A stretch of DNA of 21,208 nt from a virus: IMG/VR virus record IMGVR_UViG_3300042298_004033, positions 1-21,208 of that record. One strand, 5' to 3'. The notes beneath the pieces were generated by a model. The model did no database searches and was not told the DNA's origin. It worked only from the letters and a program-made list of their open reading frames with translations. Shown here piece by piece: positions 906 to 19,871 of the stretch. Within the stretch, counting starts at the first letter, position 1, and each line of letters starts with the position of its first letter. Made by a program: the position numbers and the translations under genes.

Positions 906-1219
906 GCTGTCCCATCACCACCCTCGACTTCGGCGAGCTGGTCCGCTGCATCCTCCCCGAAGGGCACACGGGCCCCCACGAGGACGGCTGCATTAGCTGG
1001 TACGCCCCAGCACCCCCGGGGCCCTACAGCGAGAGCCCACCCCCGGATGACATGGCCGCGTGGCGTAGCCTCGCCCGTGCCCTCCGAGGCCGCCTCACCG
1101 CGACCCAGGAGGCAGCGCGGAGCTACCTCGACGCGAGGAGGCGGGGCGACCCCCAGGCGGCACAGCAGCGGGCCAGGGCGAGACTCTTGGAGGTGCTCGA
1201 TGCTCGTTTACACCCCTGA
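902..1219 (+). CDS. Small hypothetical protein with a Cys/His motif
   Basis: The start is the GTG at 902, inside GTGA with the upstream stop and preceded by AGGAGG at 891-896. The 105-residue product is not recognised beyond a short N-terminal motif, VRCILPEGHTGPHEDGC (residues 14-30). That Cys-x3-Gly-His-x2-Pro-His spacing is seen in many small proteins of high-GC bacteria and their phages and could hold a metal ion. The C-terminal half (about 50-102) is an Ala/Arg-rich helix. Codon 103, at 1208-1210, is TTA, followed by only two more codons and a TGA, so translation may end at 102 residues if TTA terminates. The next gene starts inside this one at 1200. Confidence 0.65.
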   Translation: MSCPITTLDFGELVRCILPEGHTGPHEDGCISWYAPAPPGPYSESPPPDDMAAWRSLARALRGRLTATQEAARSYLDARRRGDPQAAQQRARARLLEVLDARLHP

Positions 1220-1313
1220 GCACATCTGCGGCGCCGCCTTCCTCCTCGGGTGGGGACTCGCGGCGCTGGTCTTCAAGCTCAGCGTTGCAGCCAAGAAGCG
1301 GAGGAAGTCATGA
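1200..1313 (+). CDS. Very small single-span membrane protein
   Basis: This is a 37-residue product starting at the ATG at 1200. It has a short N-terminal tail (MLVYTPEH), one hydrophobic stretch of about 21 residues (ICGAAFLLGWGLAALVFKLSV, 9-29) and a basic tail ending KKRRKS, which by the positive-inside rule suggests N-out, C-in topology. The frame is open upstream, but that part overlaps the previous gene and reads as Arg/Pro/Ser-rich shadow sequence. The stop overlaps the next start (ATGA at 1310-1313). Small phage membrane proteins of this type can be holin-like, superinfection-exclusion or unknown; nothing here decides. Confidence 0.55.
   Translation: MLVYTPEHICGAAFLLGWGLAALVFKLSVAAKKRRKS
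1208..1210 (+). other. In-frame TTA near a gene end (codon 103 of the gene at 902)
   Basis: This is one of only four in-frame TTA codons in the window. It lies three codons before the TGA at 1217-1219, so termination here or there changes the protein by only three residues. Confidence 0.5.
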
Positions 1314-1588
1314 AGACCTACCCCGGGCGCGACCGCGCCAAGGACCTACACAAGCTGGCCGGCGTTTGGGTCGCCATCGTTACGGGTGACCCCTGGGATG
1401 TCGACCTGGCCGAGCCCTTCGGCGACAGCAGCCCCACCGAGGGGATCGCCCGCGCCATCGGCCTCCGGTACACGGACCGCACCCCCGAGGGGAAGCGCTC
1501 GCTGATCCGGGCCTACTGCGAGCGGCTTCTGGAGGACGTGCCCCGGTACGTGCGCCGCCAGTGGAAGAAGGGCGCCGATGGCCGCTAA
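1310..1588 (+). CDS. Hypothetical protein, 92 residues
   Basis: Not recognised. The start at 1310 lies in ATGA and is preceded by GGAGGAAG (1300-1307). The product is soluble and mixed alpha/beta-looking: an N-terminal helix with KDLHKLAGVWVAIV, a GDPW turn, and a C-terminal basic helix (LIRAYCERLLEDVPRYVRR, about 65-83). It ends in DGR at a TAA stop, one of only three TAA stops in the window. The final 11 bases are shared with the next gene. Its place in a chain of small overlapping genes between a recombination-type gene and the terminase suggests an accessory, non-virion role. Confidence 0.6.
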   Translation: MKTYPGRDRAKDLHKLAGVWVAIVTGDPWDVDLAEPFGDSSPTEGIARAIGLRYTDRTPEGKRSLIRAYCERLLEDVPRYVRRQWKKGADGR

Positions 1589-1590
1589 AA
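1576..1590 (+). repeat. Junction repeat, copy 1 (CGATGGCCGCTAAAA)
   Basis: These 15 bases recur with one change at 1760-1774. Each copy holds the end of one gene (…DGR, TAA) and, in another frame, the start of the next (MA-A/G-K). The matching layout suggests that one junction was copied, or that both are kept for coupled translation. Confidence 0.5.
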
Positions 1591-1772
1591 TACTTCGCCT
1601 CCGCAGCAAGCTGATCGGTCGGATTACCCGCATCGATCGCATCATCACCCACATCGAGTGGCGGGGCACCCTCGGGCAGACCTGCGGGACCTGGCCCACC
1701 GCCCGGGTACGCCGTCTCTGGCGGATCTCCCAGGCGGCGTGGCACCGCCTTCAGAGGATCGATGGCCGGTAA
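1578..1772 (+). CDS. Small basic hypothetical protein
   Basis: This is a 64-residue product from the ATG at 1578, which lies 11 bases inside the previous gene and follows a purine-rich GAAGAAGG (1564-1571). It is very basic, with many Arg and Trp residues: an N-terminal helix with Ile/Leu/Arg periodicity (ILRLRSKLIGRITRIDRII, 5-23) and a C-terminal Arg/Trp segment. It could bind nucleic acid, but no known domain is visible. The stop is TAA, and the gene shows the same end/start junction sequence as the gene before it. Confidence 0.5.
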   Translation: MAAKILRLRSKLIGRITRIDRIITHIEWRGTLGQTCGTWPTARVRRLWRISQAAWHRLQRIDGR

Positions 1773-1774
1773 AA
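1760..1774 (+). repeat. Junction repeat, copy 2 (CGATGGCCGGTAAAA)
   Basis: Fourteen of the 15 bases are identical to 1576-1590. This copy again contains DGR-TAA of the upstream gene and ATG-GCC-GGT-AAA (MAGK) of the downstream gene in another frame. Confidence 0.5.
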
Positions 1775-2004
1775 AGGCTGCCCCCACCCCGCCCGCTGAG
1801 CCCACCGCGCGCGCGCCTGACCTCGACGTCCAGGCCATGGAGCGCACCCTCAAGCAGTTGTGGCCGTCGAGCGTCATGCTCGATGTCTGGGAGCGCATGC
1901 GCGAAGCCCGGCGCCAGGCCTGGGCCGAGTACGCCCGCTCCTTGCTCCCCCGCTCTTGCCCTGGTTGCGGCGTCTCGCACAGCCTGGCTGAGGTGTGCCG
2001 ATGA
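1762..2004 (+). CDS. Small protein with a C-terminal CPGC zinc-ribbon-like half
   Basis: The 80-residue product starts at the ATG at 1762, with AGAGG just upstream (1753-1757). A Pro/Ala-rich N-terminus (to about 22) is followed by a helical region containing WERMREARRQAWAEYARSLL. The C-terminus ends with CPGCGVSHSLAEVCR, giving cysteines in CxxC-x10-C spacing plus a His. That could be half of a metal-binding knuckle, with another chain or residue completing it. The stop overlaps the next start as ATGA at 2001-2004. The function is unknown. Confidence 0.6.
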   Translation: MAGKKAAPTPPAEPTARAPDLDVQAMERTLKQLWPSSVMLDVWERMREARRQAWAEYARSLLPRSCPGCGVSHSLAEVCR

Positions 2005-2312
2005 GCGCCCCCGAGCCTGCCTCTCTGGCGCTGTGGCATATTCGCCTCCTCCGCACCGCCCTCCGCGAGGCCGCCGCCTGTGGCATCGCCTTCTCCGAGT
2101 GCGCCGAGGGCCCCGGGTGCCTGCTGATCTACCTGGACGGCTCGAAGCACAGCACGCGCCCAGGCGAAGCCGTTGCCATCCTGGCCCGGCGCATCTCCCG
2201 CGTCACCCCACCGGACGGCACCGATCGCGCGCAGTGGCTCCGGTGGCACCGTCTTCTCGACGCGATGGAAGACCTCGCCGAGGCCTGGCCCTGGTGGGCG
2301 GTGACGGCATGA
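2001..2312 (+). CDS. Hypothetical protein, 103 residues
   Basis: Not recognised. The start at 2001 is in ATGA and is preceded by TGAGGTG (1989-1995). A GTG two codons upstream is possible but less favoured. The product begins with a helix (LWHIRLLRTALREAAACGI, 10-28), continues with a strand-like segment (GCLLIYLDG) and a second helix, and ends in a Trp-rich tail (EAWPWWAVTA). The stop overlaps the terminase small subunit start (ATGA at 2309-2312), so it is probably co-translated with the packaging genes. Confidence 0.6.
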   Translation: MSAPEPASLALWHIRLLRTALREAAACGIAFSECAEGPGCLLIYLDGSKHSTRPGEAVAILARRISRVTPPDGTDRAQWLRWHRLLDAMEDLAEAWPWWAVTA

Positions 2313-2776
2313 CCGCCCGGAAGAAGCCCACCCCGGCGCCTCCCCCCGACGGTCGCCCCTCGGTGGCCGAGCGGGTCGCGGTCATCCGGCGGCGCATGGT
2401 CGCCAGAACCTGGAGCCCCGACCAGACGGAGGAGCTCGCCGAGGAGTGGGGGGTGTCGCTGGTGCTGGTCCGCGCCCACGCCTCCGAAGCCTCGCGGCAG
2501 ATCGAGGCGATGGCCGACCCGTCGCAGGTCAAGGCGGCCCTCGATGGCCTGCTGCTCGAAGCCGCCGACGCTGCACGCCAGGAGGAGAAGCCCGCCGACC
2601 GGGCCCGCGCGCTCTGCCAGGTCGTGAGGGAGGGCCGCGAACTGGCCGGCATCGGCGCCCACCGGGATGCGAGGAACGACCCGAAGACGACGGCGCAGCC
2701 GGAGCCCAAGCCCGCCGAGACGCCCTTCTGGCTTCGACCCAAGGCGAAGACCTCGAAGGAGGGCGACCCCTCGTGA
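2309..2776 (+). CDS. terS: Terminase small subunit (putative)
   Basis: The small terminase recognises the phage DNA and hands it to the large subunit. The 155-residue size and the position just before the large subunit are right for the family. Residues 1-16 are a basic, Pro-rich tail. Residues 18-66 look like a helix-turn-helix domain, with ELAEEWGVSLVLVRAHASEA as the turn and recognition helix. Residues 72-118 are a long helical region of the kind that forms the oligomeric ring. Residues 125-155 form a charged, Pro-rich tail that usually contacts the large subunit. The ATG at 2309 is in ATGA with the upstream stop, and the gene ends in GTGA with terL. Small terminases diverge quickly, so the call rests on fold-like features and synteny. 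Confidence 0.75.
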   Translation: MTARKKPTPAPPPDGRPSVAERVAVIRRRMVARTWSPDQTEELAEEWGVSLVLVRAHASEASRQIEAMADPSQVKAALDGLLLEAADAARQEEKPADRARALCQVVREGRELAGIGAHRDARNDPKTTAQPEPKPAETPFWLRPKAKTSKEGDPS

Positions 2777-4347
2777 GCGAAGGCGCCGCCTTCACCGACT
2801 TCCTCGACGCCCTCGACGTGCGCCTCGAAGCGGGGCAGCGCGCCTTCTGCCTTGTGGCCTTCGATGGGGTCCAGGTCGCTGACCTCCAGGGCGAGGACCG
2901 GACGTGGGCGGTGAAGATCTTCGGCGACCTGCCGCGGATGCCTGACGAGGAGTGGGCGTTCATCCGCATGGTGCTGTGCATCGTGGCCGGGGGGCGCAGC
3001 GGGAAGACGTACCTCGCTTCCTTGCGCCTCTTGCACCTTGCCCTGACGGTCGACCTGTCGGGCCTGGCGCCGGGCGAGGAGGCCTTCGCCATCATCATCG
3101 CCCCGCGCGAGAAGGAGGCCTGGCAGGCGCTGAAGTACGTCGCCGGGGCTGCCCGGAAGCACCCGGACATCAAGCGCTGCATCGTCACCGATACCAAGGT
3201 GCTGCTCACCCTCCGGCGCCCCCAGGACGGGCAGATGGTGACCATCATGCCCACCGCAGCGGGAGCCGGCGGCATCAGCGGACGAGGGAAGACGCTGATC
3301 GGTGCGCTGATGGACGAGACCTGCTTCTTCCGCGACCAGCAGAGCGGGGTGGTGAACGACGATGCGATCTTCGATGCCGCGGAGCCCCGCGTCATCGAGG
3401 GCGGCCAGACCATCGTGGCGTCAACGCCCTGGGCCGCTCGTGGCCTGCTTCACAGGAAGTGGAAGGAGAACTTCGGGCACCCGCGCAACGCCATCGTGGC
3501 TCACGCCTCGACGCGCAACATGCGCACGAACGCGCTGCAGCTCCGCAAGGTGGACAACGCCTACAAGAAGGACGCGAGCAACGCCGCCATCGAGTTCGGC
3601 GCCGAGTGGGGCTCGACCACGACGGAGCTGTTCTTCTCCGACGCCGAGCTCGATTCGATCTTCGATGGCACGGCGCCGCCCCTGGGCACCCGCCCGACCC
3701 CCGGTGACCTCGTGGGCGCCGGCGGCGACCTCGGCTTCAAGCGGAACAGCAGCTCGCTCGCCATCGTGCGCCAGCGACCCTCGCGGCAGGTCTGGCTCGC
3801 GGACCTCCTGGAGCACAAGCCAACGGGGGGCGTGAGGCTCAAGCCGAGCGTGGTCTGCGGGGACTTCGCCCAGCGCCTGGCGACCTTCGGGGCGTCGGGC
3901 CTGGTGGCGGACCAGCACGAGCGGGCGAGCCTGGAGGAGCACATGGGCGACGCAGGGTTGAGCGTCCACGATGCCCCCGCGGCGACCGATGCGCTGGTGT
4001 CGCTGAGGGCGAAGGTGCGGGAAGGGCTCGTCAAGGCGCCGACCCCCGCGGAGGACGACGACAGCCCCGAGGCCACCCTGCTGCGGCGCCTGCGGGAGCA
4101 GCTCACGGGGATCAAGCAGCGCAGGACCGTGGGCAACCAGATCTCCGTGGTCATCCCCGAGGCCATCGACGGGAGCCACGGCGACCTCGCCCAGGGCCTG
4201 GCAAACGCGGTGTGGGGCTTGAGCGCGGTGGGCGGCGAAGAGGCAGAAGAGACCAAGGAAGAGGACGAAGTATGCGAACGAGATCGACGGGAAATCGAGG
4301 CAAGGGAACGGGCGCTGCGAGCAAGGCGCGAGGAGCAAGCGTGGTGA
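2773..4347 (+). CDS. terL: Terminase large subunit (packaging ATPase and nuclease)
   Basis: This is the motor that threads DNA into the prohead and cuts it. Of 524 residues from the GTG at 2773, the N-terminal ATPase has Walker A at 72-79 (AGGRSGKT, K78), Walker B at 179-182 (LMDE, catalytic E182) and a coupling motif at 214-218 (IVAST). The C-terminal RNase H-like nuclease shows D319 in GGDLGF, D380 in VADQHE and D471 in SHGDLA, the usual acidic triad. The last 40 residues are a highly charged Glu/Arg helix. The start is supported by AGGAGGG at 2757-2763 and by GTGA overlap with terS. An upstream extension in this frame would overlap terS and reads as Arg/Pro-rich shadow. The gene is complete, and all key residues are present. 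Confidence 0.95.
   Translation: MSEGAAFTDFLDALDVRLEAGQRAFCLVAFDGVQVADLQGEDRTWAVKIFGDLPRMPDEEWAFIRMVLCIVAGGRSGKTYLASLRLLHLALTVDLSGLAPGEEAFAIIIAPREKEAWQALKYVAGAARKHPDIKRCIVTDTKVLLTLRRPQDGQMVTIMPTAAGAGGISGRGKTLIGALMDETCFFRDQQSGVVNDDAIFDAAEPRVIEGGQTIVASTPWAARGLLHRKWKENFGHPRNAIVAHASTRNMRTNALQLRKVDNAYKKDASNAAIEFGAEWGSTTTELFFSDAELDSIFDGTAPPLGTRPTPGDLVGAGGDLGFKRNSSSLAIVRQRPSRQVWLADLLEHKPTGGVRLKPSVVCGDFAQRLATFGASGLVADQHERASLEEHMGDAGLSVHDAPAATDALVSLRAKVREGLVKAPTPAEDDDSPEATLLRRLREQLTGIKQRRTVGNQISVVIPEAIDGSHGDLAQGLANAVWGLSAVGGEEAEETKEEDEVCERDRREIEARERALRARREEQAW
4331..4335 (+). promoter_or_regulatory. Ribosome binding site deciding the start at 4344
   Basis: AGGAG lies inside the 3' end of terL, eight bases before the GTG at 4344, which itself forms GTGA with the terL stop. 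This favours 4344 over the in-frame ATG at 4272. Confidence 0.6.
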
Positions 4348-4553
4348 CGCTGGCCGAGGCCGTGACGACGCTGGCGACCGCGGCAAGGAAGGCCGGGGTG
4401 ACGCACCTGCGCCTCCGTCGGGGCCCGGTGAGCGAGCTGGTCTTGCTCCCCGACGACCCGCCGCCGGTGGACACCGGCAAGGAGAAGGACCCCCAGGAGC
4501 TGGCCGCCGAGGCCCAGGCGCGTCGTGACTCGACGCTGTGGGGGGCCCGGTGA
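4344..4553 (+). CDS. Small hypothetical protein between terL and portal
   Basis: Not recognised. With the GTG at 4344 the product has 69 residues. A helical N-terminus (TLAEAVTTLATAARKAGV) is followed by a beta-like strand (THLRLRRGPVSELVLLP), a Pro/Asp-rich linker and a C-terminal charged helix. An ATG at 4272 would add 24 Arg/Gly/Ser-rich residues but would overlap terL by 76 bases. The gene ends in GTGA with the portal start. Small genes in this slot are common in short-tailed phages and are usually of unknown role. Confidence 0.6.
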   Translation: MTLAEAVTTLATAARKAGVTHLRLRRGPVSELVLLPDDPPPVDTGKEKDPQELAAEAQARRDSTLWGAR

Positions 4554-6400
4554 GGGGCCGCGCCGAGACCCGCTGGTGGCGAGCGGAGGACCACCACCGG
4601 CTCACCGTGCTCCAGGCCGCGCTGGACGATGCGTACACCACGAGCAGCTCGCGGCTCTGGAGCTACGAGCGGGCCGTGAGACTCTTCAGCGAAAAGCTCG
4701 AGGTCGTCATCGGTCGGAACCTCGCCACCCCGGCGCGGCTCGACTTCAACCTGGTGCGCACCCTCAGCCTCACCGCCCGCGCTCACCTCGCGGAGTACGC
4801 CCCGCCGAGGGCCGCCATCTACACCGAGGGCGGCTCCTGGGAGATGCGCCAGCGGGCCCAGGACCTCCAGAAGTGGACCACCGCGGCGGTCTACGCCACC
4901 AAGATGGACAAGGAGGTGCGGGAGATGGCGAGCGTGCGCTGCGCCGCCTTCGGAGACGGCCCCCTCCGCATCGGCTCACGGTGGGGCAAGATCACCGTCG
5001 AGAGCGTCAAGCCCTGGGAGCTGTTCGCCCACGAGGAAGACGAGCGGGCGGGCGAGCTGCGCACCCTCTACCGGGTCCACGAGGAGGACCGGGGCGTGCT
5101 CGCTCACCTCTACCCCGACGAGGCGAAGGCCATCGACGAGACGGAGGGCTGGAGCCTCGTGCCCTGGGGGGCCATGGGCGAGCGCTACGGTGGCCGGAGC
5201 CACCGCATCCCCGTCGTGGAGGCCTGGCATCTGCCCAGCAGCCCCGACGCCGAGGACGGGCTCTATGTCCAGGCCATCGAGGGGAAGATCCTCGAAGAGC
5301 GCCCCTGGACCGCGCCCCGCTTCCCCTTCGCCTGGTGGGGCTGGACGCGCCAGCCCGGCGGCGGCTTCTGGTCCAGCGGCATCGCGGACGAGGTGGGGGA
5401 GTTTCAGCGTCAGATCGGGCTGTTGCTGCACAAGCTCCAGGCCGCCATCGACCTCACCACCAACCCCAGGATGCTGGCGCCGAAGGCCTCGCGCCCGACG
5501 CCCTGGCCGCCCACGAACGAGATCGGCGGCATCACCTGGTTCGCCGGCAACACCCCGCCCACGTGGGATGTGGCTCGCGCGGTCTCCCCCGAGATCGCCC
5601 TGCAAATCGAGCGGCTCTGGGCCAAGGGGTTCCAGCAGACCGGCATCCCCGAGATGGCCGCCATGGGCGTCAAGCCCGCGGGGCTCAACAGCGGCGAGGC
5701 CATCCGCGTCTACGCCGACAAGGCGAACGGGCGCCTCGCGAGCTGGAGCATCGGGCAGCAAGACCTGTACGTGGAAGCCGCGGTGCTGAAGATCGACGAA
5801 GCCCGGCGCCTCACCGAAGAAGACCCGGAATTTGCCGTCGTCTACCAGGACGAGAAGAGCCAGACCATCGAGCGGGTCTTGTTCGCGGACGTCGACCTCG
5901 ATGAGGACACGTACACCGTGCGGGCCGCCCCCGTGTCGAGCCTCCCCGAGTCCCCCGCAGGCAAGCGGGCGCTGGTGGCCGACATGCTGGCAACCGGGCA
6001 GATCGACCCGGTTCAGGCCCGTCGCCTCAACCGCGACCCCGACCTGGACGCCGAGCAAGACCTGCTCGACGCGCGGGTGAACCTGCTGAAGAAAAACCTC
6101 GAAGACATGCTCTTTGGCGCCGGGATCTACATCGCGCCGGAGCCCATGGATGACCTCGTGGCCGCGAAGGAGCTCGCCCGCGCCTACTACGCCAAGGCCC
6201 GCAGCGAGGGCGTGAGCGATGCTCGCCTCGCGCTCGTCCGTCGCTGGTCCGCCGCCGTCGTCGCCCTGACGACGCCACCGCCACCGCCTCAACCACCGCC
6301 CGGCGCGATGCCTCCCGAGGGCCCGCCGGCGGACATGCCCCTGCCTCCCCCTCCCCCTGACGCGGGCGCCCCGATGCCCGAAGGAATGCCCCTCGCATGA
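4550..6400 (+). CDS. Portal protein
   Basis: The portal is the dodecameric ring at one capsid vertex through which DNA enters and leaves. The 616-residue length and the position between terL and scaffold fit a podovirus-type portal. Visible features are an N-terminal helical region (about 15-100), a mixed alpha/beta region with a WGKITVESVKPWELF strand pair (about 145-159), a stem-like helical segment around 275-400 containing GEFQRQIGLLLHKLQAAIDL and a Gly/Pro-bounded WFAGNTPP loop, and a Glu/Asp/Arg-rich helical C-terminal region. The last 45 or so residues are a Pro/Met/Ala-rich low-complexity tail, probably flexible. The GTG at 4550 overlaps the previous stop; a GTG at 4538 is the alternative. 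The stop overlaps the scaffold start (ATGA at 6397-6400). Confidence 0.85.
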   Translation: MRGRAETRWWRAEDHHRLTVLQAALDDAYTTSSSRLWSYERAVRLFSEKLEVVIGRNLATPARLDFNLVRTLSLTARAHLAEYAPPRAAIYTEGGSWEMRQRAQDLQKWTTAAVYATKMDKEVREMASVRCAAFGDGPLRIGSRWGKITVESVKPWELFAHEEDERAGELRTLYRVHEEDRGVLAHLYPDEAKAIDETEGWSLVPWGAMGERYGGRSHRIPVVEAWHLPSSPDAEDGLYVQAIEGKILEERPWTAPRFPFAWWGWTRQPGGGFWSSGIADEVGEFQRQIGLLLHKLQAAIDLTTNPRMLAPKASRPTPWPPTNEIGGITWFAGNTPPTWDVARAVSPEIALQIERLWAKGFQQTGIPEMAAMGVKPAGLNSGEAIRVYADKANGRLASWSIGQQDLYVEAAVLKIDEARRLTEEDPEFAVVYQDEKSQTIERVLFADVDLDEDTYTVRAAPVSSLPESPAGKRALVADMLATGQIDPVQARRLNRDPDLDAEQDLLDARVNLLKKNLEDMLFGAGIYIAPEPMDDLVAAKELARAYYAKARSEGVSDARLALVRRWSAAVVALTTPPPPPQPPPGAMPPEGPPADMPLPPPPPDAGAPMPEGMPLA

Positions 6401-7329
6401 CGACCGAAGAGACGACCGCCACCATCGAAGAGCCCCAGTACGGCCTTGCCGCCGTCGAGAAGATCCTCGACGCCCACATCACCGCGAAGGAAGCCGCCGC
6501 CCGCGCTGCAAAGAAGCCCGCCAGCGCCGACGAGGAGGACGAAGAAGACGACGAAGAGGAGGACAAGGACAAGCCCAAGGCTCCCCCACAGCCCGGCGAG
6601 AAGCCCAAGACGCGGACCGGGAAGAAGATCAAGGACCTGCGCCGCGGTCGTCGCGAGGCGGAGGCCAAGGCGGCGCAGCTCGAAGCCGAGCTGGCGAAGC
6701 TCCGGGCCGCGCCTCCGTCCCCCGCCGTCGACCTGGAGCTGGCGAAGAAGTCGCCGCTCGCGGCCCTGGAGCGCCTCGGGCTCACCCGCGAGGAAGCGCT
6801 GGACCGCATCCAGCAGGAGGCCATCCAGGCCGGCGCCCTGCCCCCTGCGGTGGCCAAGGCCGTGAGCGCGCTCCAGGAGAAGCTCGACGCCCTGGAGAAG
6901 CGCAACCAGGAGCTGGAGGCGCAGCGCGAGGAGCGCGAGGCGATGGCCGCCCACGAGGCCGGCATGCGCGCGCTCCAGCAGGAGGCCGCGGACCTCAAGG
7001 CGTACCCTGAGCTGGAGGGCTACGACTGGGCCACGGAGATCACCCCCGCCATCGACCAGGCCATCGACTACCTCGTGGCCCAGAACCCGGGGGCGAAGGT
7101 GTCTCCGGCCAAGGTCATCGGGCTGGTGAACGCCGCCTTCAAGGCCCACCACGAGAAGCTCGCAAAGCGCCGCCCCGCGCCGGCAGCTGCCGCGCCGCCT
7201 GCTGCGGCGACGAAGAAGCCCGTCCCTCAGCTCGCCCCCGTCCAGGCCGGAAAGAAGGGGAAAGTCGTCCTCCCGACGATGGACGAGATCCAGCGCCGCG
7301 TGGCGAGGGCTGGACAGCGCGCCTCTTTA
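6397..7329 (+). CDS. Capsid scaffolding protein; 3' end set at a TTA codon
   Basis: Scaffolds guide assembly of the capsid shell and then leave. This product is very hydrophilic: an acidic run of Glu/Asp at about 47-58, Lys/Pro-rich linkers, a long coiled coil (about 88-105 and again 160-200, with EKLDALEKRNQELEAQREER), an Ala/Pro-rich hinge near 265-280 and a conserved-looking C-terminus ending PTMDEIQRRVARAGQRAS. Position between portal and capsid gene fits. There is no TAA, TAG or TGA in this frame until 9142-9144, which would give a 915-residue product running out of phase across the whole capsid gene and into the decoration gene. I place the end at the TTA at 7327-7329 (310 residues), where the coding character stops and a non-coding gap begins. 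A lost stop or an indel in the read data are the alternatives. Confidence 0.75.
7327..7329 (+). other. In-frame TTA at the scaffold end, candidate stop
   Basis: The triplet follows GCC-TCT in the scaffold frame. Upstream codons are G/C-ending and scaffold-like. Downstream, the same frame gives Pro/Arg/Ser-rich sequence with no domain, and then the shadow of the capsid gene. Confidence 0.5.
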
Positions 7330-7468
7330 CGTTCATCCTCCTTGACAAGAGCGCAGACCCCTGCGCCCTGCCCGCCGCCAGCCCACGGCGCCGTCTCAGT
7401 CGGCAAACGCTGCCCCGCTCCCCGCGGACCCGCCCAGCGACCCCGACCCCTGACCAGGAGACGGCCCC
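7330..7468 (+). other. Intergenic gap before the capsid gene
   Basis: This is the longest apparently non-coding stretch inside the gene chain. It is C-rich. TTGACA at 7342-7347 matches a -35 consensus, but no -10-like sequence lies 16-18 bases downstream. A loose CGCTG/CAGCG inverted repeat (7408-7412 and 7435-7439) is the only fold I see. It ends in the strong capsid ribosome binding site. Confidence 0.5.
7456..7460 (+). promoter_or_regulatory. Ribosome binding site of the capsid gene
   Basis: AGGAG with an eight-base spacer precedes the ATG at 7469. It is one of the best-spaced sites in the window, as expected for the most abundant protein. Confidence 0.75.
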
Positions 7469-8755
7469 ATGGCCCTCGGTCCCGAAGATCTCGCAGCCGC
7501 AGCGAACGTCCTCAAGACGATCTATTCCCCCGAAGAGCTGATGCTCATGCTCTGCATGCGCCGGCCCTTCATGGCCGCCATCGTGAAGTCCGACGACTTC
7601 GAGGGCGACTTCTACAAGCACACCGTCCAGCACGGGTTCAACCAGTCGGCTGGCCCCACCCCCGCGGTGGCCATCGACACGTACAGCACCAACGCCGACG
7701 CGCGCTTCAGCCTGGAGCGGAAGCGTTACTACGGCTACGGGAAGATCTCCCGCGAGGTCATGCTCGCGACGCGCTCCGACAAGGGCAGCGTCACCCGCAA
7801 GTACAAGCAGGCCCTCGACGGGATGATCAAGGGCCTCGGGAGGTACCTGGACTTCACCGTCTGGAGCGACGGCGGCGGGGCCTACGGTCGGCTCTCGGGC
7901 GTCGGCGTGGCCTCGGGCCTGCTGGCCACCCAGGTGCGGCTCGCCAACCTGCATGGCGCCATCTGGATCGAGCCCGACCAGAAGCACCAGTTCAGCGTCA
8001 ACACCGGCTTCGGTGGCGTCCAGACGGTGCGGCAGCCGGGCGGCGGCGCCGAGGCCGCGGCTTCCACCGGCATCACCCTCACCGTGGCCAACGTGAACAC
8101 CCGCACGGGCGTCATCACGTACACCGGTGCGGTCCCTGTCGCCGCCGGCGAGGTCACCGTCAACGACTACGTGTTCCGCACCCGCACCAAGGGCCTCGTG
8201 CTCGACGGCGTGCGCGGCTGGTGTCCGATGGACGACACGACCGCGGCAGCGGCCTTCCTCGGCGCGACCCGGTCCGTCAACATCGACCGCCTCTCGGGGC
8301 AGCGCTGGCTCGACCCGCTCGCCACCTACGTCGAGACCATCCGCGAGGCCTGCGCGTACGCCTCCACCCTCGGCAACGCGGGGACCTCGATCTTCATCAA
8401 CCCGATGACCCAGAACAAGATCGAGAACAGCGAGCGGGACAAGGTCTTCAAGGAGGAGATCGGCGACCTGGAGATCGGGTTCCAGGTCACGAAGTTCCAG
8501 ACGCCGCTGGGCGAGCTCGACATGATGGCGGACCCCGCGGTGCCCCCCGGCTGGGCGTTCGTCACCGACCCCAAGGACTGGTCCTTCAAGCACCTCGGGA
8601 AGATGGTCGGCTTCTTCGAGGAGGCGGGCCTCCTGCGCCGCGTCCACGGCGAGGACAACTACGACTTCGAGGGCGGGGGCTACGGGAACATCCTCACGGA
8701 TGCGCCCGGCAACAGCCTCTGGATCAAGCTCGACAAGAACGCGCAGGTGGTCTGA
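7469..8755 (+). CDS. Major capsid protein
   Basis: The 428-residue product forms the icosahedral shell. It follows the scaffold, has a strong ribosome binding site and a composition typical of HK97-fold capsid proteins of short-tailed phages. It has an N-terminal helical arm (residues 1-35), an extended loop-like region with aromatic and charged residues (RKRYYGYGKISREVML near 85-103), a long helix (SDKGSVTRKYKQALDGMIKG, about 107-126) and a beta-rich inserted segment (about 190-245). A second core region carries SIFINPMTQNKIENSERD, followed by a C-terminal aromatic strand region. The gene starts with ATG and ends in TGA overlapping the next ATG (TGATG). The assignment rests on synteny and general features, not on a catalytic motif. 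Confidence 0.88.
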   Translation: MALGPEDLAAAANVLKTIYSPEELMLMLCMRRPFMAAIVKSDDFEGDFYKHTVQHGFNQSAGPTPAVAIDTYSTNADARFSLERKRYYGYGKISREVMLATRSDKGSVTRKYKQALDGMIKGLGRYLDFTVWSDGGGAYGRLSGVGVASGLLATQVRLANLHGAIWIEPDQKHQFSVNTGFGGVQTVRQPGGGAEAAASTGITLTVANVNTRTGVITYTGAVPVAAGEVTVNDYVFRTRTKGLVLDGVRGWCPMDDTTAAAAFLGATRSVNIDRLSGQRWLDPLATYVETIREACAYASTLGNAGTSIFINPMTQNKIENSERDKVFKEEIGDLEIGFQVTKFQTPLGELDMMADPAVPPGWAFVTDPKDWSFKHLGKMVGFFEEAGLLRRVHGEDNYDFEGGGYGNILTDAPGNSLWIKLDKNAQVV

Positions 8756-9144: not shown

Positions 9145-9145
9145 C

Positions 9146-9361
9146 ATGGAGCTGGACCTCGCGGCCCTCATGAAGGGCAAGAGCAAGAAGAAGGCGCCCC
9201 CTCCGGACGACTACGCCGCGGAGCCTGAAGAGGAAGAGGGCGACGAGATGGACGGGCCTGCGCTGCTCGAGCAGTTCTTCGCCCAGGGCAAGGCGAAGGA
9301 CTTCGAGGGCGCCTGGGAGACGCTCCAGGAGGCCGTCGCTCTCGCCGCCGAGGAGGACTGA
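9146..9361 (+). CDS. Small acidic hypothetical protein
   Basis: This 71-residue product begins one base after the previous stop. It has a basic patch (KGKSKKKAPPP, 10-20), an acidic run (AEPEEEEGDEMD, 25-36) and a C-terminal helix (EGAWETLQEAVALAAEED). Small proteins with this Lys-patch, acidic-run and helix layout are found between capsid and adaptor genes in short-tailed phages of high-GC hosts, as far as I recall, with unknown role. A chaperone or connector function is only a guess. Confidence 0.65.
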   Translation: MELDLAALMKGKSKKKAPPPDDYAAEPEEEEGDEMDGPALLEQFFAQGKAKDFEGAWETLQEAVALAAEED

Positions 9362-13400: not shown

Positions 13401-13541
13401 GGCCGCTCGCTCCAGGTCGAGCTGAGCGAGGAGCTTCCCGCCGGCGGCACCGAGTCCGGGGGCCTGGAGATCTACGGGCTCTCGCTGGAGATCGGGCAGA
13501 AGCGCGGACGCTACAAGGGCGCCCCGGAGAACAGGAAATAA
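10470..13541 (+). CDS. Tail nozzle / head-stabilisation-type protein
   Basis: At 1023 residues this is the longest gene in the window. Early residues contain ENLKYDRAGVLKKRHGYSDV (about 35-54), the signature of phage stabilisation and tail nozzle proteins that close the portal channel. Two long beta-rich regions follow, separated by strand/turn units such as GASLLIFSRTRVYALSGLGP and GGVLFLAESGFHLMA, which suggest propeller-like repeats. The C-terminus is beta-rich, with a GGTESGGLEIYGLSLEIGQK segment. Length and context (adaptor upstream, ejection-type proteins downstream) resemble tail-nozzle proteins of short-tailed phages more than P22 gp10 in size. The ATG at 10470 is the only start that avoids a large overlap. 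The stop is TAA at 13539-13541. Confidence 0.75.
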   Translation: MALQKAVLPLLVQGGLAQDTDEVALGMGAGFVLVENLKYDRAGVLKKRHGYSDVSDSAFRGLTTVADDQARSLTPHRGAMVAVLGDEPAQIATFTEQGWAEHGRACSLSMRRDSALRIQDAVVENAQVVVVGVWTVLVYLANEALVYKQIETATGAVVQDERILVLDKVKGCRAFEVNTDVVVVYHYNDGAGTIELRAFRLKTNLGSGTVKSPDLVLDATGIDVPFDAIPSETEANVFWAAWVPIPRVGVRVGKYQIGGLPLDAPTVVTAALTHAEPDAGPLGMGTHASGRIWVAFSRFNGGTGDIRLLQWAPLPFALATPASTVFTGATSGHFRRPAVSLDGWVAWEDMSGVGGGFQQVDTAGALVGARRYLWRETLQSRFFRQRSQDWILLGESNGAPGQGTYALVRPSQASDLPLTSTYHGAICLDVAAGTEPRHALGSVELLETDRWRWGALVRTGLVNPNLATSRGRKGVDFVTLDFRRSQAPVLTSTEASGCLLQGGALAPFFDGQQVVEQGFLRGPVILAHVLTAGVGSIEGADVAPGIYNVYIYRCVYEWQDERGNWHTSEPSTPLAVSVSLANTNARVELDIACLGLTRRGDSLIGRNARISVYRTEKNSTGPYYRIDDPSAAILANRRGAQSENFTDNFSDAQMLALGYGRLYTDGEVLEHRLAPSALAVAVWQNRVWIVSGEDPRQVVFSKEVIPGGAPAFNPSQLFVQIEEEATGLAPSGASLLIFSRTRVYALSGLGPTDTGASADWRGPSVVSEAVGCVDARSIVQFPGGVLFLAESGFHLMASPQSPPAFVGAAVLQLVRDYPTCRGAAHDEENGRVLWTMEPANGRGLTLVWDYLRNAWMVWTPGGTASTRYPGPLAVLGGVHWYGHGAGIRRSSSNLADQSDYFSWRLILPWARVGGVTGFQRVWRVLVALKRGGGVKLLTRLRHDESTAIAQTAEHLLSDLDAENGERLVLETHVANQKGRSLQVELSEELPAGGTESGGLEIYGLSLEIGQKRGRYKGAPENRK

Positions 13542-13543
13542 CC

Positions 13544-14251
13544 ATGTTCGGACTCAACTGGAAAGACGCGGCGATGATGGTCGGCATGGGGCCCATGGCG
13601 CCGCTGGTGCCCCTGGCCAAGCAGTCCCTCGGCCGAGGTCGCGAGGCCAACGCAGCGGCCTACGGCTACAACTACCAGCCGGAGTACGACTGGACACAGG
13701 CCCAGCAGGACTACGCGGCGCAGCAGGCTGCCGGCGCCGGCATGATGGACGCGGCAACCCAGGCCCGCCTCGAGGCCGAGGGCAAGCTTGGCCCGTCGGT
13801 GGCCCAGCAGCAGCAGGCCGCGGGCCAGCAGCGCGCCGCCCAGGAGGCCGCCAACTTCGCCGCCAGCGCCCGCGGGGGGCCCGCTGCCGTGGCCAACGCC
13901 CAGCGCCAGGCGATGACCGTCCAGGCCAACGCTCAGAGCCAGACGGCGCAGCAAGCGGGCGTCCTCCGGAGCCAGGAGCAGCAGGCGGCCTACCAGCGGG
14001 AGCTCGCCGCCCTCCAGGGCGCGGGGCAGCTCGCCACGTCGCAACGGCAGGGCTCCATGGGCATGGCCGGCGCCGAGGTCGACGCGCAGATGCAAGCCGA
14101 GCGGTACCGGCAAGAGGGCGCCATCGGCTACGACCAGGCCGCCACCGCGGCCGACCAGGCGTACCGCGACCGGCAGCGGAAGTTCTGGGGGAAGTTCATC
14201 GACACCGGGACCGGCATCGCCACCAAGGGCGCCACGGGAGGCATGGGCTGA
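13544..14251 (+). CDS. Ala/Gln-rich internal virion (ejection) protein
   Basis: The 235-residue product starts at the ATG at 13544, after AGGAAATAA with the upstream stop. Residues 1-30 hold a short hydrophobic Met/Gly/Pro-rich segment (DAAMMVGMGPMAPLVPLAKQ). The remainder is almost entirely Ala/Gln/Arg helical sequence (for example AAQQAAGAGMMDAATQARLE), ending in a Gly/Thr tail (TGIATKGATGGMG). This composition is typical of phage internal proteins ejected with the DNA, similar in kind to P22 gp7/gp20. The stop overlaps the next start (TGATG at 14249-14253). No enzymatic motif is visible. Confidence 0.65.
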   Translation: MFGLNWKDAAMMVGMGPMAPLVPLAKQSLGRGREANAAAYGYNYQPEYDWTQAQQDYAAQQAAGAGMMDAATQARLEAEGKLGPSVAQQQQAAGQQRAAQEAANFAASARGGPAAVANAQRQAMTVQANAQSQTAQQAGVLRSQEQQAAYQRELAALQGAGQLATSQRQGSMGMAGAEVDAQMQAERYRQEGAIGYDQAATAADQAYRDRQRKFWGKFIDTGTGIATKGATGGMG

Positions 14252-16626
14252 TGCCGTGGTCGAGCTACGCCCGGCAGCCGGATGGCCGCGTGCGCCTCGT
14301 GGACGACACGGGCGGCACGCTGGACCTGCTGCCCTCGCCTTCGGTGGATGCGGAGATCGCGCGCATCGATGGCGCCATGCAGCCGATGGTCCCGGAGGTC
14401 GTCCCTGATGGCATCGTGACGGCGAAGAGCGCGCCGATGGCGGCGAACCGGGCGCAGATGATCACGCCCCCCGCCGCGCCGGTGGTGAACGTGGCGCCCC
14501 CCGCGGCAGGGAACCCCCTGGTCCCTCCGGCGCCCATCGTCGCCGCGCCCGCTCCGGCCCCGGGGAGCCCCCTGGCGCCGATGGCGGCGCCTCCCGCTCC
14601 AACGGGGCCCGCTCCAGCCGCCCCCGCGGCGCCCCCGCCCCCCGCAGGCCCCTCGCCCGCGGGCCTCGGCGCCGGCAAGATCGTACGCGGGCAGAACTGG
14701 GGCAACGTCAACGCGGAGGACCAGCTCCGCGGCGCGCAGGCCAACCTGCTCATCCAGCAGGCCAACGAAGAGCTGAAGGGCAGCCCCGGGCGCTTCGTCC
14801 CTGGTGGCACCTTCCCCACGGGCAGGACGGAGCAGTTCGCCCCCGGCCCCGACCCCCTCGCCACCGCCGAGCGCGAGGCCGCGGAGCGCAAGCTCGCCAG
14901 GGTCGATGACGCGCTCACCTGGGTGGAGACCCATCGGCAGCAAGACCTCGGCGACGCGGCGCAGGCCGAAGCCGCGAGGGCTGCGGAGCGCCAGCGCCAG
15001 CTCGATGAGCTGAACGCCCGCCAGCAGCAGAAGCTCGGCGGGGTCCTGGAGCAGATCGACACGGGCCGGCGCGAGCTGGCCGACGCGAAGATCGACCCGG
15101 ACCGGAAGCTGAAGGAGATGAGCACGGGCCAGCGGGCAACAACCGCGCTCCTCATGCTCCTGGGCGGCTTCGGCAAGGCACTCGCCGGCGAGGACGGCGA
15201 CCCGATGGCCATGCGGGTGCTCGATGAGTCCATCAAGATGGACATCGACCTTCAGCGCGAGGCCATCGACCGCAAGCGCGGCAACCTCAACACCCTCGGC
15301 GAGATCTACCGCCTCACGCGCGAGCAGTTCGGCGACGAGCGCATGGCCCAGGATGCGGCCTACCTCGCAGGCCTGGAGATCTACAAGGCGAAGATCCAGA
15401 AGGTGCACGCGGAAGCGGATGCGGCGATGGGCGTCGAGACCCAGTACGACGCCGATGGCCGGATCATCGCGAGCAACCCCTACTCCATCAAAGCTCAGCG
15501 GCTTCTCGCGGCTCTCGATGTCGAGCAAGCGCGCCTCCGGGAGCAGCTCAGCCAGGCCGCCGCGGGGCAGGTCTCGCAGCAGTTCGCGACGGTGCAAGAC
15601 CGCATCGAAGGCGGCAAGGCGCCGAACCGGGAGAAGGCGGCGAAGCTCCTCGGAGAGGCGGCGAAGGCTGCGGGGAGCGAGGGGCAACAAGTCACCTACG
15701 GGGACCAGAAGTTCAAGCTTGGGGCGTTCGTCGAGCCGGGCGAGGGCAAGGCGCTCCGCGGAGACCTCGGCGGAATCGAGAACCTCAAGGCCGACATCGC
15801 GCTCCTGGAGAAGGAGCTGAAAGATCATCCTGTCGATTCCAAGACCTTCAACAAGTCGAAGGTCGATGGGCTCATGGAGCGCATCAGCAGCAAGGGCAAC
15901 GTCGTGCTTGGCCAGGGCGCCAAGAACAACGACGAGGCCGCGCGCTGGAACGCGATTCTCGGCGGCGTGATGACGAACGGCGTGGGCGCCGTCCAGGACA
16001 TGAGCCGATGGGCGGACGACATGGCGAAGCGCAAGCTCGACCAGGTCAACGCCAAGCCCGCGGGCGCGGGGCCGAAGATCAACGTCCCCCAGGAGCTGCA
16101 AGACAAGGCCAGCGGCGCGCGGCCGATGGGCGGCGGCGGTGGCGTCGTGGGGCTCCCTCGCGGCGCAGCCCCCCAGCAGCGCCCCTCCTCGCCCGTCGTG
16201 CGGTCCACCGGCGCCGCGGCCTCGCCGCTCGACCGGGCCGGCGCCGCGGTGGTCCAGCTCCGCGAGGCGAAGGACGACAAGGCCCGCGCGAAGACCGTGA
16301 CGCTCCTGCGCTCGACGCTGCGGGACAGCCTCCAGGCGGGGCAGCTCGGGGAGTCGGAGTACAAGGCCGCCCTCACCCTCGCGGACGCCGGCGACGTTGA
16401 CGGGCTGCTGGGGTTCCTCGGGCGCATGCGCGGAGCCGTGCCCCTCGCCCCCGGTGCGGCGATGCGCCCCGATGACCTCAACCGAGCGATCTCGAACCGA
16501 CTGCTGATGAGCCAGCTCGACCGGGCCGGTGAGCCTGCTCTCCGGGCGATGGCGACGCCGCCCGCAGCCCTGACAACGGTGGTCCAGAAGACCAAAGGCA
16601 AGCTTCTCCCCACGGAGAAGAGGTTA
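14251..16626 (+). CDS. Internal virion (ejection) protein; ends at TTA overlapping the next start
   Basis: Ends at the TTA at 16624-16626 (791 residues), or at the TGA at 16807-16809 (852 residues) if TTA is read as Leu. Features: a short N-terminal domain, a Pro/Ala-rich linker (about 72-138), a long coiled coil (about 205-282), then a hydrophobic helix (TTALLMLLGGFGKALAG, about 297-313) followed by amphipathic helices (IDLQREAIDRKRGNLNTL). The pairing of a hydrophobic helix with a long coiled coil is typical of phage internal proteins that help translocate DNA. The residues after the TTA are Arg/Pro/Ser-rich shadow of the next gene. The start has GGGAG at 14236-14240. Confidence 0.7.
16624..16626 (+). 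other. TTATG junction, candidate TTA stop
   Basis: TTA at 16624-16626 is in frame with the upstream gene and shares its A with the ATG at 16626-16628. Elsewhere the same layout is TGATG (8753, 10468, 14249). If TTA is sense, the upstream frame continues for 183 bases inside the next gene. Confidence 0.5.
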
Positions 16627-19415
16627 TGGCTGGGCCCCCGCCCTCCACGGTCACGGTCTACGGGCCCGATGACGCGCCCGTGCAGGTGCCTGCGGCGGAG
16701 GCTGCGGCGCTCCTGCGCTCGGGAGAGTACGGGCTCCCGGAAGACGCGACCGTGCCCATGCAGGCGGCGGATGGGTCCTGGCAGACGGTCACCGGCGCGG
16801 AGGCCGTGAAGCGGGCGCAGAGCTTCACCGCACGCATTGGGAGCGAGGCGGACGTCCAGGACTACGCCAAGAAGGAGGAGTTCCGCGGCGCGGGGAACAT
16901 GGCGCTCGCGGCGGGAAGCGGCGTCGCGGACTCGCTCTTGCTGGGCTTCGGCGATGCGGTGATCTCGAAGGTGGGCGGAGAGCGCGCACGGCAGTTCCTC
17001 GAGGACGCCGACCGCTACGCCCCGGGCTCGCGCATGGCGGGGCAGGGGCTCGGCTTCCTGGCCCCCATGCTCGTCAGCGGTGGCACTGCTGGCGCCGCTT
17101 CTGCCGCGGGCAAGGGCGCCCAGGCGGCTTCGATGGCGACCCGGGCGGCGAGGGTGGCCACGGCGCTCCCTCGTGGGCTGACGGCGGTGGCGGAGGGCGC
17201 CGGCAGCGTCGCGGCTCGCGCCGTCGGCGGCGGGCTCCCGGGGCGCTTCGTGGCGCCGGTGGTGTCGCAGGGGATCGAGCTGGGCGTCTACGGCGCGGGC
17301 CAGGGGGCGAGCCGCGCCATCGTCCGCGACCCCAACGCGGACGGCGAAGCGGTGGCCGCGGCGATGGGGCAAGGGTTCCTCCATGGGGCCGGCATGGGCG
17401 CGGGCTTCGGCGCAGGCTTCGGGCTCCTCGGGATGGCCGGGGCGAAGGCGGGGCAGGTGGCCAGCCGCACCGCCGAGCGAGCCGGCGGGGCCATCCGGAG
17501 CCGCGTGGGCGAGTTCATCGACACGACGGCGGCGAAAGTCCGCGGCATCGAGGAGGGGCTCCGGGCGGGGCAGCTCCCGGAGCGCGTCGAGCAGCTCGCG
17601 AACCGGGGCCTGGACGAAGCGACGGCGCTCGCCGAGCGGGTCACCGGGCGCACCGCTCCCGAGGCGACCGGGCTCGCGGGCAAGGCCGACCGGCTCGCGC
17701 GCACGGTGGTGGATGTCGACAAGGCGGCCCTGGAGAAGGCGCTTCAGAGCACCGGAGCGAACGAGAAGATCCTGCAGAAGGCCAGCGCCCTGGGCCCGGC
17801 CCGCGAGGTCGCGGCGCGGCAGATCGTCGAAGAACTGCCGAAGATGCTCGGGAAGGAGGGCAAGGTGCTCACCTTCGCCGAGCAGGCGGAGGCCGCGGCG
17901 CTGCTCCGCCGCCAGGTGGGCGAGCGCATGGGCGAGGCGCTCGAGCGCCTCGACGCCACCGGCGCAGGGATCTCCGTCTCGGCGGTGGCCAAGAAGGCCC
18001 GGCGCGAGGTGGTCGATGAGCTGAAGAAGATCGCGGGCGCCGAGGGCTACGTGGCCCGCGTGGAAGACTACCTCACCTCCCTGGAGAGCAAGGCCACGCA
18101 GGGGCGCATGGGCCTCGGGGAGTTCCACAAGAACCGGGCTTTTCTTGACGATATGGTCTACGAGGCCGCCGCCAGCCGGAGCCCCGCGCGCAAGGCCCTG
18201 GAGAAGGTCCGCGGGATCATGGAGTCGTCCTTCGAGTCATCCGCCACGCGCGCCGCGAAGGCCGCCGGGAGCGACGCAGCGGAGGCGTACAAGGCCGCGA
18301 AGGTGGAATACCGCGCCGCGTCCTGGGTCAAGGAGGCGACGGAGAAGGGCGCGAGCCGCAGCGGGGCAAACCGGGCCGTTGGCTTCTCCGAGCAGGTCGG
18401 GGCCCTCACCGGTGCGGTCCTCGGCGGCGGTGGCATCACGGGCCTTGCAACCAGCGTGGCGAGCGCGGCGGCGAACCGCGCGGTCAAGCAGGTCGGCGAC
18501 CAGGCGACCGCGGCGATCCTGCGCGAAATGCAGATGGGGAAGCCCCTCGCCGAAGCCGTCGCAGACGTCACGCGCCGCAACATCGGGGACAAGACGCGGC
18601 AGTTCTTCGCCATCGCGGAGCCTGTCCGGAAGAAGGCCGGCGAGGTCGTGGGCAAGTTCCGCGAGCGCGTCATGACGCGAGGCCGCGAGGTCGTCGCCGC
18701 CGGCGCGGAGACCGCTCGCACGGTCGGGCGCGGCGTGGCTCGGGGGGCTCGTGCAACGGCGCGGGCCACGGGTCGCGGGGCCGAAGCGGCGGCGATGGCC
18801 GCGGACTACGACCGGAGGCGGAAGGAAGTGTTGGCGGCTCGCACCGGAGGGCCCACCAAGATCGCGGAGACCGCCCGGCGCATCGAGCAGGCCGGCGCGC
18901 CTCCCGAGGTGGCCGCGGTGGCTGCGGCGACGGCGCAGCGAGGGGCCGTGTTCCTGGCGGCGCGGCTGCCGCCGGTGCCCCAGCGCGTGCAGACGCTCCA
19001 GCCGGACCTCGCCGCCGACACGCCGGACCCCGAAGCGATGGCCTCGTGGCTCCGGATGGCGAAGGTCATCGAGTCGCCGATGAGCGCGCTCGACAGCCTC
19101 GCCGCCGGCACGCTGGACGCGGGCGAGGTCGAGGCGCTCCGCGAGGTGTACCCGACCGTCTACCAGCAGATCCGCGACCAGGTGGCGCTCGAGATCCAGG
19201 ACCTCAGCGACCGCGGCGAGCGCCTCCCCTACGGCAAGGCCCTGGCGCTGGGGACGCTGCTCGACGTCGTTGCGGACCCGACCCTCGACCCCGCTTTTAT
19301 CGCGGCGATGCAAGCGCCCGCGCAGCCCGCCGCGCCCCCTGTCGCCCCCTCACGCCGCGCCGTCTCGCGCGCCCCCGGTCTCTACAGCCTCAACCAGGAG
19401 TCCCCTCGCCTATGA
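16626..19415 (+). CDS. Large internal virion protein with membrane-like Gly-rich segments
   Basis: 929 residues. The N-terminal part (VTVYGPDDAPVQVPAAEAAA, 9-28) resembles the short beta/helix domain opening many phage internal proteins. Several Gly/Ala/hydrophobic stretches follow: about 90-115, 139-170, and a glycine-zipper segment at 247-277 (HGAGMGAGFGAGFGLLGMAG); another lies at about 586-622. The middle and C-terminal parts are helical. About 803-895 carries a segment seen at the end of such proteins, with ALREVYPTVYQQIRDQV and RLPYGKALALGTLLD followed by DPTLDPAF. The likely role is forming a channel across the cell envelope during DNA ejection. GGAG at 16614-16617 supports the ATG at 16626. 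The stop overlaps the next start (ATGA). Confidence 0.75.
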   Translation: MAGPPPSTVTVYGPDDAPVQVPAAEAAALLRSGEYGLPEDATVPMQAADGSWQTVTGAEAVKRAQSFTARIGSEADVQDYAKKEEFRGAGNMALAAGSGVADSLLLGFGDAVISKVGGERARQFLEDADRYAPGSRMAGQGLGFLAPMLVSGGTAGAASAAGKGAQAASMATRAARVATALPRGLTAVAEGAGSVAARAVGGGLPGRFVAPVVSQGIELGVYGAGQGASRAIVRDPNADGEAVAAAMGQGFLHGAGMGAGFGAGFGLLGMAGAKAGQVASRTAERAGGAIRSRVGEFIDTTAAKVRGIEEGLRAGQLPERVEQLANRGLDEATALAERVTGRTAPEATGLAGKADRLARTVVDVDKAALEKALQSTGANEKILQKASALGPAREVAARQIVEELPKMLGKEGKVLTFAEQAEAAALLRRQVGERMGEALERLDATGAGISVSAVAKKARREVVDELKKIAGAEGYVARVEDYLTSLESKATQGRMGLGEFHKNRAFLDDMVYEAAASRSPARKALEKVRGIMESSFESSATRAAKAAGSDAAEAYKAAKVEYRAASWVKEATEKGASRSGANRAVGFSEQVGALTGAVLGGGGITGLATSVASAAANRAVKQVGDQATAAILREMQMGKPLAEAVADVTRRNIGDKTRQFFAIAEPVRKKAGEVVGKFRERVMTRGREVVAAGAETARTVGRGVARGARATARATGRGAEAAAMAADYDRRRKEVLAARTGGPTKIAETARRIEQAGAPPEVAAVAAATAQRGAVFLAARLPPVPQRVQTLQPDLAADTPDPEAMASWLRMAKVIESPMSALDSLAAGTLDAGEVEALREVYPTVYQQIRDQVALEIQDLSDRGERLPYGKALALGTLLDVVADPTLDPAFIAAMQAPAQPAAPPVAPSRRAVSRAPGLYSLNQESPRL

Positions 19416-19717
19416 ACCTCTCCATGTTTTCCATACGCTCCAGCGCCCGCGCCGACGCCGTGAAGCGCAACGACGGCAGCACCGGCACCGCGCTGAGCAA
19501 CTCGCTCAAGCTGGGCCAGGTCGCGGTCGCGTTCCTCATCCACGGCGGCGCGACGGGGAACCTCACCTTCGTGGACCCCGACGGGAACACCCACGTGATC
19601 GACGTCGCCACGGACCGCGCCCAGGGCGTGTGGCACCTGGAGCAGATCGCTCAGGTGCTGGCCACCGGGACCACCGTGGCGGCGACGGCCCTCGAACTCG
19701 GCTGGTCGGGGGTCTGA
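19412..19717 (+). CDS. Small hypothetical virion protein
   Basis: This 101-residue product starts in ATGA at 19412, with AGGAG at 19396-19400 (11-base spacer, long but usable). The first residues (MNLSMFSIRSSARADAVKRN) are atypically AT-rich at the codon level. The rest is beta-like: LKLGQVAVAFLIHGG and GNLTFVDPDGNTHVIDVATD. It sits between the internal protein and the fibre genes, so a tail or virion role is likely. Not recognised. Confidence 0.6.
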   Translation: MNLSMFSIRSSARADAVKRNDGSTGTALSNSLKLGQVAVAFLIHGGATGNLTFVDPDGNTHVIDVATDRAQGVWHLEQIAQVLATGTTVAATALELGWSGV

Positions 19718-19718
19718 C

Positions 19719-19871
19719 GTGATCGGCGGCCTCTCTCTCGCTCTCCTCGCCCAGCTCAGCGGGAACGCCCCCGCCACCGGTGCTCCTCCGCCCGCGGCGC
19801 CCGTTCTCGTCACCAACACCGGCGACCGCATCGTCACCAACACCGGCGACCGCATCAAGGTGAACCCGTTA
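19719..19871 (+). CDS. Tiny protein with two VTNTGDRI repeats; ends at TTA
   Basis: GTG start at 19719, one base after the previous stop. With TTA (19869-19871) as the end the product has 50 residues. It has a hydrophobic N-terminus (IGGLSLALLAQLSG), a Pro/Ala linker, then VTNTGDRI twice. Short proteins carrying a few TxxGD-type repeats upstream of fibre genes are known from phages of high-GC hosts, as far as I recall, without clear function. If TTA is Leu, it continues to 19973 through the fibre gene with Arg/Pro/Ser-rich shadow sequence (84 residues). Confidence 0.5.
19809..19856 (+). repeat. Two exact 24-bp tandem repeats
   Basis: The unit at 19809-19832 is repeated without change at 19833-19856 and encodes VTNTGDRI each time. 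Exact identity at synonymous sites means the duplication is recent or copied by slippage. Copy number could vary between isolates. Confidence 0.8.
19869..19871 (+). other. TTATG junction, candidate TTA stop
   Basis: TTA is in frame with the gene at 19719 and shares its A with the ATG at 19871. It is the second TTATG with the same layout as at 16624. Confidence 0.5.

What the first reader, a model, noticed from the sequence alone, without database searches (positions are those of the whole stretch)
1208..19871. TTA occurs in frame only at gene ends: a possible UUA stop or unassigned codon
I scanned the whole + strand and found 21 TTA triplets. Against the supported reading frames, 17 are out of frame (mostly xTT-Axx or xxT-TAx). 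Only four are in frame (1208, 7327, 16624, 19869) and all four lie at the 3' end of their gene. In three, TTA is where a stop is needed: two form TTATG with the next start, as TGATG does at 8753, 10468 and 14249, and one ends the scaffold. After each of these three TTA codons the frame turns into Arg/Pro/Ser-rich shadow sequence. CTA and TTG are used inside genes, so leucine codons are not simply forbidden. UUA is a known stop only in the Thraustochytrium mitochondrial code. In very GC-rich genomes, codons can become unassigned (codon capture). The inference is that UUA ends translation here, by release or for lack of tRNA. Rarity of TTA in GC-rich DNA explains absence inside genes but not the placement at ends.
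Basis: partly seen in the sequence, partly recalled or inferred. Interest (0 to 1): 0.9.

Follow-up and report, generated by a model that had tools for sequence, protein, structure and literature searches.

The report
UUA apparently ends genes in phages
In this very GC-rich phage and one of its relatives, the leucine codon TTA appears in frame only where a gene should stop, so their unknown bacterial host may read it as a stop signal, which would be a genetic-code change not known in bacteria or their viruses.

Summary
In detail: 21 TTA triplets lie on the + strand and only four are in frame (1208, 7327, 16624, 19869), all at gene ends. Relatives strengthen it. At 7327 both relatives have TGA in the same alignment column. 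At 16624 one relative (G004) has TAA and another (G006) again has TTA. At 1208 three relatives have TAA at the same codon. G006 holds just three in-frame TTA, all at apparent gene ends. In window plus G006, all 7 genes overlapping the next by more than 15 nt carry TTA at the junction; none of 51 others contains TTA (Fisher 3e-9). GC-rich control phages do not show this. The sequence after 16624 is not constrained as protein; after 7327 it aligns with the relatives' untranslated leader. Best reading: UUA ends translation here, as a recoded or unassigned codon. Main rival: ordinary UUA=Leu with lost stops and long overlaps, giving the scaffold protein a 604-codon tail. The host, its tRNA-Leu(UAA) and release factors could not be examined, and a distant relative uses TTA as Leu. 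A strong lead, not proof.

The parts
902..1219 (+). Small conserved gene; TTA at 1208 is its 4th-last codon (TTA CAC CCC TGA)
   Evidence: Homologues in L002/L003/L004 end ..EVLDER-TAA at the same codon, at the same offset from the next ATG; a TGA follows 9 nt later here
6397..7329 (+). Putative scaffold gene ending at TTA 7327-7329
   Evidence: 51% identical to the G004 gene; TTA in the same alignment column as TGA of both G004 and G006; distance to the capsid ATG 139 nt versus 141 and 130 nt
7330..7468 (+). Untranslated leader of the capsid gene: hairpin after the TTA, then a conserved folded segment
   Evidence: Conserved at nucleotide level with G004/G006; a hairpin of different sequence at a similar place in all three; similar leader fold in all three
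7469..8755 (+). Major capsid protein
   Evidence: phrog_1328; 69% and 66% identical to G004/G006
14251..16626 (+). Virion-region gene ending at TTA 16624-16626 (AGG TTA TGG)
   Evidence: G004 homologue ends TAATG, G006 homologue TTATG, at the same place relative to the next start; coding signal ends at the preceding codon
16626..19415 (+). Large virion-region gene whose ATG overlaps the TTA
   Evidence: N-terminus aligned in three phages; no extra synonymous-site constraint in the overlap
19719..19871 (+). 50-codon gene ending at TTA 19869-19871 (CCG TTA TGG)
   Evidence: Coding signal ends at the preceding codon; the syntenic gene in G001 is 51 aa, also ends just after a C-terminal repeat, and has a normal stop
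19871..20962 (+). Gly-rich tail protein gene whose ATG overlaps the TTA
   Evidence: phrog_754 minor tail protein; N-terminus resembles the G001 gene at 19726 (MAD..GSE..P..QG)

Best explanation
UUA ends translation in this phage lineage. Shown: TTA is absent from gene interiors in the window and its nearest relatives, and stands where homologous genes have TAA or TGA, or where the next gene starts (TTATG). Inferred: in a host of about 70% GC, UUA became so rare that its tRNA-Leu(UAA) was lost or nearly lost, after which the codon acts as a weak or full stop. A release factor (probably RF2, which already reads UAA and UGA) could release the peptide at UUA because no tRNA competes, or the unassigned codon could stall the ribosome until it is rescued. 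TAA or TGA to TTA would then be a near-silent change.
For: Alignable TTA positions match stops in relatives: 1208 = TAA in three contigs; 7327 = TGA in both relatives; 16624 = TAA in G004 and TTA in G006. G006's other two TTA are a TTATG junction at the end of a DndE-like gene and a codon right after an SSB-type tip (..DQDAPF). 7 of 7 genes with >15-nt overlaps carry TTA, 0 of 51 others; control phages have 6 such overlaps, none with TTA. No sense codon other than TTA occurs at a clear lost-stop junction. The frame after 16624 is not constrained as protein. After 7327 the sequence is a conserved untranslated leader. The two G006 ORFs that run past TTA to TAG are the only TAG-ended genes there.
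Against: No bacterial or phage precedent was found in the papers searched. The host is unknown, so tRNA and release factors are untested. The data are two metagenomic contigs. G004 and the G001 group never use TTA as a stop. Distant L028 has TTA as Leu in the portal motif EAWRLP. The SSB assignment of the G006 protein is not confirmed: no Pfam or PHROG hit and a poor structure model. The gene caller was home-made.
Confidence: 0.5

Rival explanations
1. UUA is ordinary leucine. Stops at these gene ends were lost and translation runs to the next stop, giving long gene overlaps and Arg/Pro-rich C-terminal tails that are tolerated.
For: Requires no change of code. For six of the seven genes the extra tail is only 3-60 codons. 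AT-rich bases just before ATG would favour TT there. L028 shows UUA=Leu in a distant relative.
Against: Every lost stop became TTA, though other one-step losses (CAA, GAA, AAA, TCA, CGA, GGA, AGA) are open. The scaffold gene would gain 604 codons across the capsid gene. The extension at 16624 is not constrained. TTA sits in the stop column of relatives.
Confidence: 0.33
2. UUA is a rare 'hungry' codon read slowly as Leu. It sits at gene ends as a pause that promotes coupling, frameshifting or re-initiation at the overlapping ATG, so termination is partial or regulated.
For: Four of the seven sites are TTATG. TTA is a known regulatory rare codon in Streptomyces (bldA), from general knowledge.
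Against: The codons before TTA share no slippery motif (AGG, AAA, CCG, GCC, TCT, TTC, CGT). At 7327 and at G006 4979 no start codon overlaps. From general knowledge, bldA-type TTA codons lie inside genes.
Confidence: 0.12
3. Assembly or sequencing error, or a decaying phage, makes stop-to-TTA changes and indels look meaningful.
For: Single contigs with no read data here. At 7327 a +1 indel would also give a stop (TGA 7343, read).
Against: The same TTA occurs at the same gene end in an independent contig, G006. All other complete genes of the window are intact. TTA at 7327 aligns with TGA.
Confidence: 0.05

Closest known systems
Thraustochytrium mitochondrial code (NCBI table 23; from general knowledge)
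   Same: UUA serves as a stop alongside the normal stops
   Different: A mitochondrion, not a GC-rich bacterium or phage; no link by descent
Unassigned codons in Micrococcus luteus (AGA, AUA; from general knowledge)
   Same: A GC-rich bacterium in which an AT-rich sense codon lost its tRNA
   Different: Other codons; there the codon is not known to be used as a gene end
Recoded phages such as code 15 crAss-like phages (TAG to Gln; PMC9523058)
   Same: Phages whose code departs from the standard one
   Different: There a stop becomes sense; here a sense codon would become a stop
Sense-codon reassignments in bacteria found by Codetta (PMC8629427)
   Same: Codon reassignment in bacteria, with codon capture through biased base composition among the models discussed
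   Different: Codons change amino acid; the method does not model stops and gives '?' for rare codons, so a UUA stop in a GC-rich genome could escape it

Membership tests
Genetic code with UUA as stop (as NCBI table 23) | Codon stands at homologous stop positions | tested here: met
   1208, 7327 and 16624 against relatives; 19869 has only a syntenic, not alignable, counterpart
Genetic code with UUA as stop (as NCBI table 23) | Codon absent from gene interiors | tested here: inconclusive
   0 interior TTA in window, G004, G006, G001, G003 with about 4 expected from codon usage; low power, and distant L028 has one
Genetic code with UUA as stop (as NCBI table 23) | No tRNA reading UUA as Leu | not testable with these tools
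   Host unknown; no Leu tRNA in the phage contigs
Genetic code with UUA as stop (as NCBI table 23) | Release factor that accepts UUA | not testable with these tools
   Host unknown
Unassigned codon (Micrococcus luteus type) | Codon nearly extinct in a GC-rich genome and lacking a tRNA | tested here: inconclusive
   Near extinction holds in the phages; the tRNA part is not testable
Ordinary long gene overlap | Extension constrained as protein, or overlap within the usual range | tested here: not met
   No synonymous-site constraint at 16624; overlaps of 103, 184 and 163 nt plus the 604-codon run versus 11 nt or less at nearly all other junctions
Programmed -1 frameshift into the next gene | Slippery heptamer at the junction | tested here: not met
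   Junction sequences read directly: AGG TTA TGG, AAA TTA TGG, CCG TTA TGG, GCC TTA TGG, TCT TTA CGT, TTC TTA CCC

The most novel reading that the evidence does not exclude
A GC-rich bacterial lineage and its phages use UUA as a fourth stop codon, the first sense-to-stop change in a bacterium or phage, reached by codon capture and hidden from present code-inference tools.
Probability: 0.4. Interest if true: 0.95.

Novelty: new variant of a known kind. Interest (0 to 1): 0.75.

Why it matters
If UUA ends genes in these phages, a bacterium has changed a sense codon into a stop, so far known only in mitochondria (general knowledge). It would support codon capture at high GC, show a blind spot of genome-wide code surveys, and mean that gene calls and protein ends in such genomes are wrong.

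Tried and rejected
Assembly error as the sole cause: rejected because G006 has the same TTA at the same gene end. A frameshift to TGA 7343 at the scaffold end: not needed, since TTA aligns with TGA in both relatives. Selected overlapping protein after 16624: no constraint. Frameshift signals: none seen. Finding the host: genome-contig scans with terminase and capsid profiles found nothing; plasmid hits were only 25% identical; prokaryote genomes cannot be reached from a virus record. Known phages: one terminase match at 35%, none for the portal-like or the 16626 protein. Structure of the G006 SSB-like protein: pLDDT 41, not usable. My gene finder first suggested an interior TTA in G004 at 22736, but it lies upstream of the likely true start (MADDHEPILKFF..).

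Full report
What is there. The window is a 21.2-kb virus record of a tailed phage with 71% GC and its genes on the + strand: terminase, portal-like, scaffold-like, capsid and tail genes. Of 21 TTA on the + strand, four are in frame in supported genes, at 1208, 7327, 16624 and 19869; there are none in 6,659 interior codons. A codon-usage score shows the coding signal ending at the codon before TTA at 16624 and 19869, and a few codons before it at 7327, with no canonical stop for 60, 33 and 604 codons.

Relatives. G004 (IMGVR_UViG_3300032092_000255) is colinear at about 70% nucleotide identity. G006 (IMGVR_UViG_3300037462_000657) was reached with a capsid profile and is about 55-69% identical in most shared proteins. 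L002/L003/L004/L006 share the terminase at 89% but differ elsewhere.

Site by site. 7327: in a three-way alignment TTA falls in the column of TGA in G004 and G006; the distance to the capsid ATG is 139 nt against 141 and 130; and what follows is a conserved untranslated leader with a hairpin of different sequence in each phage. 16624: G004 has TAATG, G006 has TTATG again. 19869: no alignable homologue, but the syntenic gene in G001 has 51 codons, ends after a similar C-terminal repeat and has a normal stop, and the next gene's N-terminus supports its start at 19871. 1208: the homologues in three contigs have TAA at the same codon and offset from the next ATG; here the following gene is different (an insert at about 1203-1758) and a TGA follows 9 nt later, so this site is suggestive only.

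G006 as an independent test. G006 has exactly three in-frame TTA. One is the 16624 counterpart. One is TTATG at the end of a DndE-domain gene. One follows the tip ..PVPLDQDAPF of a protein encoded next to a Sak4-like recombinase gene, where an SSB would fit; that identity is inferred and not confirmed. All three ORFs otherwise run on into the next gene.

Numbers. In window plus G006, genes overlapping the next by more than 15 nt are 7, all with TTA; the other 51 junction genes have no TTA (Fisher 3e-9). Four annotated GC-rich phages (VWB, mu1/6, Mx8, phiAsp2) and two distant relatives have 6 such overlaps, none with TTA, and their five TTA are mostly interior. Random placement of seven TTA in the last 62 codons has p about 3e-5. 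These figures rest on my own gene calls, and the shared 16624 site may be one event, so they are indicative.

Is the read-through real? Comparing window and G006, synonymous sites in the overlap after 16624 are no more conserved than elsewhere (46% against 56% identical codons among conserved residues), so the extension is not selected as protein. For 7327 read-through would fuse the scaffold to 604 codons of shadow sequence, which is implausible for a working protein.

Interpretation. Shown: TTA stands where stops are expected, in two independent contigs, and nowhere else in frame there. Inferred: UUA ends translation, through a release factor or because the codon has no tRNA. Not shown: anything about the host. 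The ordinary alternative, UUA=Leu with tolerated long overlaps, remains possible; it leaves unexplained why every lost stop became TTA and why the scaffold would lose its end. Distant L028 has TTA at the Leu of the conserved portal motif EAWxLP, so the effect would be restricted to the lineage or host.

Known background. No paper found in the searched library reports UUA or TTA as a stop in bacteria or phages. Codetta does not model stops and returns '?' for rare codons (PMC8629427), so this case could be invisible to it. The Thraustochytrium and Micrococcus precedents are from general knowledge.

Noticed in passing
window 7360-7472: Leader of the capsid gene conserved at nucleotide level in three phages; predicted to fold so that GGAGACGGC before the ATG pairs with GCCGTCTC upstream, possibly controlling capsid translation. 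Folding energy is no better than shuffles, too few changes to test by covariation, no Rfam match.
   Followed up: partly
window about 1203-1758: Block of small genes absent at this point from L002/L003/L004, inserted exactly at a start codon.
   Followed up: no
L029, L030: Distant relatives with 66% GC; L029 ends nearly all genes (19 of 21) with TAA, unlike the TGA-dominated window.
   Followed up: no
window, L010/L011, L023-L025: TAG is almost unused as a stop in the window, G004 and G006 (one gene, apart from two ORFs that run past TTA), against 13-20% in four GC-rich control phages.
   Followed up: partly
L023:1467-1865 (-): A DndE-domain (DNA sulphur modification) gene carried by phage G006.
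   Followed up: no
L013:10724-10798: tRNA-Met gene close to an integrase-like gene in G001, a possible attachment site.
   Followed up: no
window 52-78: Three tandem copies of ACTGGTACC just before the first genes.
   Followed up: no
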